Source: Halobaculum magnesiiphilum
GTDB taxonomy: Archaea > Halobacteriota > Halobacteria > Halobacteriales > Haloferacaceae
Direction: 5' to 3'
Assembly: GCF_019823105.1 (NCBI RefSeq)
Contig: NZ_CP081958.1
Coordinates: 1,550,001 to 1,614,000 of the forward strand
Length of the DNA stretch: 64,000 bases
Of this stretch, positions 9,611 to 12,252 are shown piece by piece. Within the stretch, counting starts at the first letter, position 1, and the number at the start of each line of letters is the position of its first letter. A program made the position numbers and the translations under genes. Below the pieces are notes generated by a model, which searched no databases, was not told the DNA's origin, and worked only from the letters and a program-made list of their open reading frames with translations.

Positions 9611-9919
9611 GCGTCGTACACCCCGGCGGGAGAATACACCCGGATGCGGGCTGTCTGGGTGCCGTTCACAGACCACGTCAAGGGCCGAACGGACCTAACT
9701 CTGCCGCATGCGGACGTATGTCACGCCGAACCGTCACGGCGTCGCAGTCGTACCGTTCCGGGGACCTATCGAGCCGTCCGGATCCGAACGAAGGCGCGAC
9801 GAGCCGACCGGAGCGAACCCGATCGCTTCGGGTGGAACTCGGCCGCCGACCGTCCGAAACCTGGCCGGTCGACTGAGAAAGGATTAGGTAGGTCCGATTT
9901 CGAGGGATAGCCGATTCGG
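9611..9919. other. 309-base divergent intergenic region
   Basis: Lies between the leftward moxR operon and the rightward methyltransferase-like gene. It should hold both promoters: a TATA-like GAATACACC near 9633 for moxR and AAAGGATTAGG near 9880 for the rightward gene. It is slightly richer in A/T than its surroundings from about 9860. No convincing small gene, RNA or repeat was seen in it. Confidence 0.5.
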
Positions 9920-12172
9920 GTGCGAGACATATCAGGTGCCCCACGCGGTTCGTACGGACAGGGCTTCGTAGAGCGCGTCGTCGAGGCGGCCGACCGGGCC
10001 GAGGCGACGCTCGACGCCGACGCCGGCGCCGAGACCGTCGCGGCGACGCTGTGTGCGGCGCTGTTCGGCGACGTGCTGGGGTACGACCCCGACGCGTACG
10101 AGCTGGACGGTCGCGTCGGGCGGCTCCGCGACGACGACGGCGCCGTGAGCGCGACGTTCGCGGCGGTCGGACGCGACGCCGAGAACGTGGGTGCCGCGGT
10201 GGTCGCGGCGTTCGAGGCCGCCAGCGCCGAGCCGACGGCTCGATACGTCGTCGCCGGGGGCTTCGACCGGCTGCTCGTCTTCGAGCGCCTCGACCGCGGG
10301 GGAGCCGAGAAGGGAGGGGACGGCGGAAGCGCCGGGGACATCGAGAACGCCGAGGACGGCGAGAGCGCAGAGGAGGTCCGGACCGTCGCGGGCGTCTCCG
10401 CGGTCACCCACACCGAGATCCCGCTGGCGCGGATCGTCGACGCCGGGCGCCGGGGGCGGCTCTCGAAGACGCTCCGGCCGGCTCAACAGCTCGCCGTCGC
10501 GAAGCTGACCGCGTTGCGGCCGGCGGAGCTGTCCGCGGTCGACGAGGCGGGCGATGTCGACGACGCCGACGGCGTCGGTACGTCCGGACGCCACGCCGTC
10601 GCCGACGACGACGGGCTCGACACGCTCGTCGGGACGCTGCGCGACTGCCTCGGCGACCTGCTCGCGCCGGCCGTCGAGTCGGCGCAAGCGCGGCTCGTCG
10701 ACGACCTCGACGGCTACGACGAGCGCGCGGCCGACCTCCGGGACGCGGTCCGCGCCGCCCGCCGCGGCGACGGCGACGAGACCGCCGCCGGGCCGGCCCG
10801 CGCGCGACTGCTCGCCCACGAGCGCGACCACGCCGACGCGCGGGCGCTGCGTGCCGCCTACGGCACGTGGGTCCGCGGCGCCGGCCGGACGGGCTTTACG
10901 CCCTCGGAGAACCGCCGGGCGTTCGCCCGCGTCGTCGCCTTCCAGCTGGTCGAGGAGGCGCTGCTGGAGCGGGTGCTCGCGGGGACGGACCTCCTCGACG
11001 AGGCGCTCACCGGCGACGCCGTCGAGCGGTTCGAGGAGTTCGCCGAGGCGACGGGCGTCGAGCGCGACGCGGGCGACCTGCTCGGGCTGGCCCGCGAGCG
11101 ACGCGGGACGGTGTACGACCGCCGTGCGCCGGATCTGGCCGGCTGGGCGCTCGACGACGACGGGGTCTGTGCGGCGCTCTCGCGGACGGTCGGCTACCTC
11201 GATCACTTCTCCTTCGACGGCGACCCCGACCGCGCGGTCGCCGCCTACGACCGCCTGCTGTCGGTCGCGGACCTCCACGGCATCGACACAGATCCCGCCG
11301 AGCCGGACCCGCTTCCCGAGGCCCTGCTCGACGCGGCCGGCTACGACGCCTCGGCGGAGGCGGACCTGCACGGGATCGATGGCGACCTCCTCGACCCCGC
11401 CGTCGGCGACGGGCGGTACCTGCTCGCGTCCGCGGAGCGGCTCCGTTCGGGGCTCGCGGACGCCGAGCCGGCCGACCGGCTGCGGACCCTCGGCGACCGG
11501 CTGACGGGCGCGAGCCCGGACCCGCTGGCGTGTCGCGTGACCGAGACGCGGCTGTTGCTGCGGCTGCTCGGCGACTACCGCGAGGCGCGGTGGGAGGACC
11601 CGACGTTCACGCTCGACTCCCTTCCGGTATACTGCACGAACCCCCTGATCCGAGACGGCCACGAGCCGGCCGCCCTGGCCCGGGAGGACTACAACTACGT
11701 GGTCGGAGCGCCGCCGGCGACGCTGCGGCGCGACGTGGCCGACGGGCCCGTCGCGGACGCGTACGCCGACTACGAGGCGGCGTACTACACCTACGACACC
11801 TCCGCGCTGTACGTCGAGCGCGCGAGCGACTGGCTCGCCGAGAACGGGACGCTCGCGCTCCGGGTCGCCGGCCGGTTCCGCGACACGCGGTTCGGGGAGA
11901 AGCTCCGCGAGCGCATCCCGCAGTGGTACCGGCTGGAGGCGCTTCGGGAGGTCCCGGGCGAGGCGGCCGGCGGCACCCCGGTCCTGCTGGTCGCGCGGCG
12001 CTTCCGGAGGAACGAGTCGGTCGTCGACCCCGACGAGTACGAACCGCCGACGTACGGCTTCACCTACGCCGAGGGGCTCGCCGACGGGGGCGTGCGGCGC
12101 TCGTCGGCCCGGCTGACCGCCGAGCACTGGGAGTGGGACGCCGACGGCGACGACGACGAGATCGGGATCTGA
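9920..12172 (+). CDS. degenerate Eco57I-like restriction-methyltransferase family protein
   Basis: Encodes 750 residues from a GTG. The C-terminal half has the order of parts of an Eco57I/type IIG or PglX-like N6-adenine methyltransferase: a SAM-binding motif I DPAVGDGRYLL (D492 to ~502, compare DPACGSG), then DPLACRVTETRLLLRLL, YCTNPLI, and a motif IV region YNYVVGAPPATL, then SALYVERASDWLAENGTLAL and FGEKLRERI. The catalytic (N/D)PP(Y/F) tetrad is replaced by A597-P-P-A600, so methylation activity is predicted lost. The N-terminal ~130 residues (AVSATFAAVGRDAENVGAA, then RYVVAGGFDRLLVFERL) look like a worn nuclease or DNA-binding module without acidic-Lys catalytic residues. It lies 80 bases upstream of mutS in the same direction. 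Role unknown; a DNA-binding or SAM-sensing job is inference. Confidence 0.7.
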   Translation: MRDISGAPRGSYGQGFVERVVEAADRAEATLDADAGAETVAATLCAALFGDVLGYDPDAYELDGRVGRLRDDDGAVSATFAAVGRDAENVGAAVVAAFEAASAEPTARYVVAGGFDRLLVFERLDRGGAEKGGDGGSAGDIENAEDGESAEEVRTVAGVSAVTHTEIPLARIVDAGRRGRLSKTLRPAQQLAVAKLTALRPAELSAVDEAGDVDDADGVGTSGRHAVADDDGLDTLVGTLRDCLGDLLAPAVESAQARLVDDLDGYDERAADLRDAVRAARRGDGDETAAGPARARLLAHERDHADARALRAAYGTWVRGAGRTGFTPSENRRAFARVVAFQLVEEALLERVLAGTDLLDEALTGDAVERFEEFAEATGVERDAGDLLGLARERRGTVYDRRAPDLAGWALDDDGVCAALSRTVGYLDHFSFDGDPDRAVAAYDRLLSVADLHGIDTDPAEPDPLPEALLDAAGYDASAEADLHGIDGDLLDPAVGDGRYLLASAERLRSGLADAEPADRLRTLGDRLTGASPDPLACRVTETRLLLRLLGDYREARWEDPTFTLDSLPVYCTNPLIRDGHEPAALAREDYNYVVGAPPATLRRDVADGPVADAYADYEAAYYTYDTSALYVERASDWLAENGTLALRVAGRFRDTRFGEKLRERIPQWYRLEALREVPGEAAGGTPVLLVARRFRRNESVVDPDEYEPPTYGFTYAEGLADGGVRRSSARLTAEHWEWDADGDDDEIGI

Positions 12173-12252
12173 TCGGCGGCGCGCTCGGCGAGTCGGACCG
12201 GGTCGGTGCGAAACCCTTTCGCCGCTCGCCCGCCCGCTGGCAACCAACGACT

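What the first reader, a model, noticed from the sequence alone, without database searches (positions are those of the whole stretch)
9920..12172. Methyltransferase-like protein with its catalytic tetrad erased
The protein keeps the order of motifs of Eco57I/PglX-type N6-adenine methyltransferases, including motif I DPAVGDGRYLL, but motif IV reads GAPPA instead of GNPPY: both the Asn and the Tyr needed for transfer are Ala. The gene is otherwise intact over 750 codons with normal composition, so it is under selection for something other than methylation, perhaps DNA or SAM binding.
Basis: partly seen in the sequence, partly recalled or inferred. Interest (0 to 1): 0.75.

Follow-up and report, generated by a model that had tools for sequence, protein, structure and literature searches.

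The report
Conserved doubly dead restriction-modification enzyme relic
In Halobaculum and three related genera of salt-loving archaea, an old restriction-modification enzyme has lost its DNA-cutting residues, its DNA-methylating residues and its DNA-recognition domain, yet the shortened gene has been kept in frame and under selection in about 15 species, so it probably has a new, non-catalytic job.

Summary
ORF 9920-12172 has motif I (DPAVGDGRYLL) and GAPPA where active relatives have (G)NPPY. It is not a single-strain mutation. In 15 readable orthologues from four haloarchaeal genera (Halobaculum plus three), all next to moxR and forming one clade (100/100), the Asn and Tyr of motif IV are never present: GAPPA, GAPPT, GSPPA, GRFPA, GAFPA, GRFPT, SDAPT, TDAPT, SDPPN. 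The pentapeptide itself drifts.

The closest active relatives are ~1,200-aa single-chain type IIG enzymes (nuclease, helical domain, N6-MTase, TaqI_C recognition domain). Compared with 12 of them, the family has also lost the nuclease E-x-K (0/15), motif X FYTP, an invariant Asn after motif IV (Gly in 15/15), the motif II Asp (in Halobaculum) and the whole recognition domain. It is a doubly dead, truncated pseudoenzyme, not 'otherwise intact'.

Codon-position bias, dN/dS of about 0.34-0.40, frame maintenance and a conserved promoter-like block indicate selection as a protein. It is dispensable: deleted or absent in 3 of 11 Halobaculum. Best reading: a domesticated, non-catalytic protein with a scaffold or regulatory role. 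The mechanism is not shown.

The parts
9920..12172 (+). Pseudoenzyme gene, 750 codons, GTG start (the ATG start of the orthologues is ATA at 9929-9931 in this strain)
9953..10429 (+). Dead nuclease-like domain, residues 12-170; HSDR_N-like fold order; Asp, Glu and Lys of the active relatives replaced (V66, A81, V83)
10430..11269 (+). Helical connector domain, residues 171-450, with the strongly conserved stretch WVRGAGRTGFTPSENRRAFARV
11294..11305 (+). Place of motif X (FYTP in active relatives), lost, residues 459-462
11387..11425 (+). Motif I, LLDPAVGDGRYLL, residues 490-502; retained, with Ser to Asp at residue 497 in all 15 orthologues
11513..11515 (+). Place of the motif II Asp (residue 532), Ser here
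11705..11719 (+). Motif IV, GAPPA in place of GNPPY, residues 596-600
11735..12079 (+). Conserved rest of the MTase fold, residues 606-720; includes N to G at residue 651. The protein ends about 30 residues later, without a recognition domain
9875..9889 (+). Promoter-like block GAGAAAGGATTAGGT, aligned upstream of the gene in the Halobaculum carriers

Best explanation
The gene encodes a domesticated pseudoenzyme. A single-chain type IIG restriction-modification enzyme (nuclease, helical connector, Eco57I-type N6-adenine MTase, TaqI_C recognition domain) settled next to moxR in an ancestor of Halobaculum and three related genera, lost its recognition domain and the catalytic residues of both enzyme domains, and was kept for a non-catalytic function. 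Shown: homology, fold, the losses, one clade, synteny and protein-level selection. Inferred: the retained helical domain and MTase fold act as a binding module, most likely a structural or regulatory partner on nucleic acid or in a protein complex, as METTL14 does for METTL3. About 0.7 that it is a functional pseudoenzyme; about 0.3 for the binding-module mechanism as stated.
For: Asn and Tyr of motif IV absent in 15/15 orthologues of four genera, nuclease Glu and Lys absent in 15/15. Dead clade monophyletic, 100/100, with shared position next to moxR. Codon-position bias 14/15/52 (p = 3e-8) in the closest pair; dN/dS 0.34 in that pair, 0.40 pooled, 0.175 around motif I and 0.24 after motif IV. 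Frame kept through many in-frame indels. Promoter-like block conserved with the gene. Confident fold, pLDDT 83, matching N6-MTases. About 20 positions fixed in the dead clade and rare or absent in active enzymes.
Against: Dispensable: internal deletion in G003, clean absence in G006, G010 and (another genus) G012. Faster evolving than its neighbours. Ancestral ATG start lost in the window strain. No partner, ligand or expression evidence. No single Eco57I-family MTase accompanies it in all carriers.
Confidence: 0.6

Rival explanations
1. A slowly decaying relic. The gene no longer has a function, and high G+C keeps the frame open.
For: Faster evolution than the neighbours, losses in several species, start codon change in the window strain, frameshifted copies in G009 and G077 (the G009 mutL is also broken into two pieces, so assembly error is likely there).
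Against: Third-position excess in the youngest pair, dN/dS well below 1, frame and both ends kept across four genera, strong conservation of particular segments.
Confidence: 0.2
2. A new catalytic activity on another substrate, using the remaining motif I pocket.
For: Motif I loop invariant in 15/15 and the most constrained segment; fixed S497D.
Against: Motif X lost, motif II Asp lost in Halobaculum and g40, motif IV variable without any new constant residue set.
Confidence: 0.1
3. It acts with mutS and mutL in mismatch repair.
For: Directly upstream of mutS-mutL on the same strand in Halobaculum.
Against: In g3 and in g40 species G122 the next gene is a PALP-family enzyme. A GCGAAACCCTTTCGCC block before mutS (about 12208-12223) remains where the gene is deleted, so mutS probably has its own promoter.
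Confidence: 0.04
4. It is still an active N6-adenine methyltransferase with an unusual motif IV.
For: Overall MTase fold and motif I retained.
Against: Asn and Tyr absent in all orthologues and the replacements drift; motif X and the recognition domain are missing; other Eco57I-like proteins keep NPPY.
Confidence: 0.02

Closest known systems
Type IIG single-chain restriction-modification enzymes of haloarchaea (HSDR_N + Eco57I/N6_Mtase + TaqI_C; e.g. L074, L086)
   Same: Same order of nuclease-like, helical and MTase domains; 26-29% identity over the shared part
   Different: Nuclease motif, motif X, motif IV Asn/Tyr and recognition domain all lost; fixed chromosomal position instead of scattered occurrence
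BREX PglX/BrxX
   Same: Related MTase fold, weak profile and structure matches
   Different: Far below the NCBIfam cut-off (15.9 against 400 bits); neighbours are moxR, DUF58, mutS and mutL, no BREX genes seen
Type ISP enzymes LlaGI and LlaBIII
   Same: Related MTase domain
   Different: No helicase domain in the 750-aa protein or in its active relatives
METTL14
   Same: An adenine-MTase fold with a degenerate motif IV (EPPL for DPPW), kept for a non-catalytic role (PMC5023411)
   Different: Analogy only; eukaryotic, RNA-directed, with a known active partner

Membership tests
Type IIG restriction-modification enzyme | Active-type nuclease motif (D...E-x-K) | tested here: not met
   Glu and Lys columns 0/15 in the family
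Type IIG restriction-modification enzyme | MTase motif IV N-P-P-Y/F | tested here: not met
   A-P-P-A here; Asn and Tyr 0/15
Type IIG restriction-modification enzyme | SAM-binding motif I | tested here: met
   DPA-GDG kept in 15/15, with S497D
Type IIG restriction-modification enzyme | C-terminal target recognition domain (TaqI_C) | tested here: not met
   Absent; present in active relatives
BREX PglX | Score above the curated PglX cut-off and a BREX gene neighbourhood | tested here: not met
   15.9 bits against 400; neighbours moxR, DUF58, mutS, mutL
Type ISP | Helicase domain in the same chain | tested here: not met
   No helicase match
Pseudoenzyme kept by selection | Catalytic residues lost across orthologues while the coding sequence is constrained | tested here: met
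Pseudoenzyme kept by selection | Demonstrated lack of activity together with a phenotype or partner | not testable with these tools
   Needs biochemistry and genetics

The most novel reading that the evidence does not exclude
A whole clade of restriction-modification enzymes has been domesticated in archaea into a non-catalytic regulator or scaffold, with both enzyme domains dead and the recognition domain discarded: a prokaryotic counterpart of METTL14.
Probability: 0.3. Interest if true: 0.75.

Novelty: new variant of a known kind. Interest (0 to 1): 0.5.

Why it matters
Restriction-modification genes are usually seen as mobile, quickly gained and lost. Here one lineage lost both activities and its recognition domain, yet was kept at a fixed chromosomal place through the divergence of four genera. 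It makes domestication of a restriction-modification protein testable in culturable archaea, and it warns that automatic annotation of Eco57I-like methyltransferases can count dead proteins as active.

Tried and rejected
Recent single-strain mutation: rejected. Antisense ORF 9932-12247 as the real gene: rejected, because variation peaks at the third position of the sense frame, which is the first position of the antisense ORF, and homology is in the sense frame. A mismatch-repair role: no ancestral support. Obligate pairing with a particular Eco57I-family MTase: no such partner in all carriers; other MTase classes were not tested. BREX or ISP membership: not met. A similar gene upstream of moxR in 20 further haloarchaeal genomes: none found. 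Literature searches found no description of an inactive type IIG family; subscription papers are not in that library.

Full report
Observation. The window is Halobaculum chromosome: named orthologues are H. gomorrense, H. saliterrae and H. litoreum, and the window is G000:C1:1550001-1614000. ORF 9920-12172 encodes 750 aa with DPAVGDGRYLL and VVGAPPA as reported. Pfam Eco57I matches weakly (22.4 bits). An AlphaFold model built from 21 sequences is confident (pLDDT 83, pTM 0.68), and its best solved matches are N6-adenine MTases: type I HsdM, CamA, M.BseCI, BrxX, LlaGI.

Orthologues. Seven of 11 Halobaculum species have a full-length frame, one (G009) has it with frameshifts, one (G003) keeps only a 48-codon remnant of an internal deletion, and two (G006, G010) have a moxR-mutS junction of about 228 and 341 bp without the gene. 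In the family (170 genomes) further orthologues divergent from moxR occur in genus g40 (three), g9 (one) and g3 (five, one of them frameshifted). One g3 species, G012, has moxR next to the PALP gene with about 120 bp between them and no pseudoenzyme gene. Twenty further haloarchaeal genomes have no homologue upstream of moxR.

Motif IV. It reads GAPPA, GAPPT or GSPPA in Halobaculum, GRFPA or GAFPA in g40, GRFPT in G178 (g9), and SDAPT, TDAPT or SDPPN in g3. The Asn and Tyr are never present; only the second Pro is constant. The other Eco57I-like proteins retrieved keep NPPY where that region is covered.

What was lost. The nearest active relatives are single chains of about 1,200 aa with HSDR_N-like nuclease, Eco57I/N6_Mtase and TaqI_C domains, found in scattered genomes. 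On columns invariant in 12 active enzymes, the 15 orthologues lack the nuclease Glu and Lys (0/15), the Asn and Tyr of motif IV (0/15), the Asn at residue 651 (Gly in 15/15) and the motif X FYTP block. The motif II Asp survives in 5/15. The D, P, A, G and G of motif I survive in 15/15, while the Ser of GSG is Asp in 15/15. The recognition domain is absent; the g3 proteins keep about 100 residues after the MTase fold. About 20 positions are fixed in this clade and absent or nearly so from active enzymes. The clade has 100/100 support, with the caution that its inner branches are long and G178 is a long branch; shared synteny supports it independently.

Selection. At this G+C an open frame proves little (antisense ORF of 771 aa). 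Differences between the window and G007 fall 14/15/52 on codon positions 1/2/3 (p = 3e-8); other pairs are stronger. Nei-Gojobori dN/dS is 0.34 for that pair, against 0.06-0.28 for moxR, mutL, DUF58 and mutS in the same pair, and 0.40 pooled over Halobaculum. These values are not corrected for codon bias or transition bias. Constraint is strongest around motif I (0.175) and after motif IV (0.24). A promoter-like block, 9875-9889, aligns upstream of the gene in Halobaculum carriers, and the search with this region did not find it in the species without the gene. In the window strain the orthologous ATG start is ATA, and the likely start is the GTG three codons upstream.

Function. Specific DNA recognition, cutting and adenine methylation are all very unlikely. 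SAM binding is possible but weakened. Linkage to mutS is largely confined to Halobaculum, and mutS has its own promoter-like block, so a mismatch-repair role has no ancestral support. The most economical reading is a domesticated pseudoenzyme that uses its helical domain and MTase fold for binding. METTL14 is a known case of a dead adenine MTase kept as a partner (PMC5023411), but no partner was found here. The repeated losses show that the function is accessory.

Limits. There are no expression, biochemical or polymorphism data. Model coordinates could not be inspected. Genera g3, g9 and g40 are unnamed in the tools. The literature search was limited to an open library.

Noticed in passing
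window 12208-12223: GCGAAACCCTTTCGCC block before mutS, kept (with small changes) where the pseudoenzyme gene is deleted or absent (G003, G010); likely the mutS promoter.
   Followed up: partly
window 9817-9833: Palindrome ACCCGATCGCTTCGGGT between moxR and the pseudoenzyme gene, with similar sequences in several Halobaculum, and part of it also in G006, which lacks the gene; possible operator of moxR.
   Followed up: partly
L083 8918-9235: In G003 the gene is reduced by an internal deletion to a 48-codon frame that joins the N-terminal part to the last few residues.
   Followed up: yes
L072 7598-9958: In H. litoreum (G009) the gene is broken by frameshifts; mutL and DUF58 there are also split into pieces, so assembly error is likely.
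   Followed up: partly
L081 7708-9855: G113 has a 716-aa relative with intact nuclease and NPPY motifs but no recognition domain in the same frame: a truncated or split active-type copy.
   Followed up: no
window 9929-9931: The start ATG of the orthologues is ATA in the window strain; GTG at 9920 is the likely start.
   Followed up: yes
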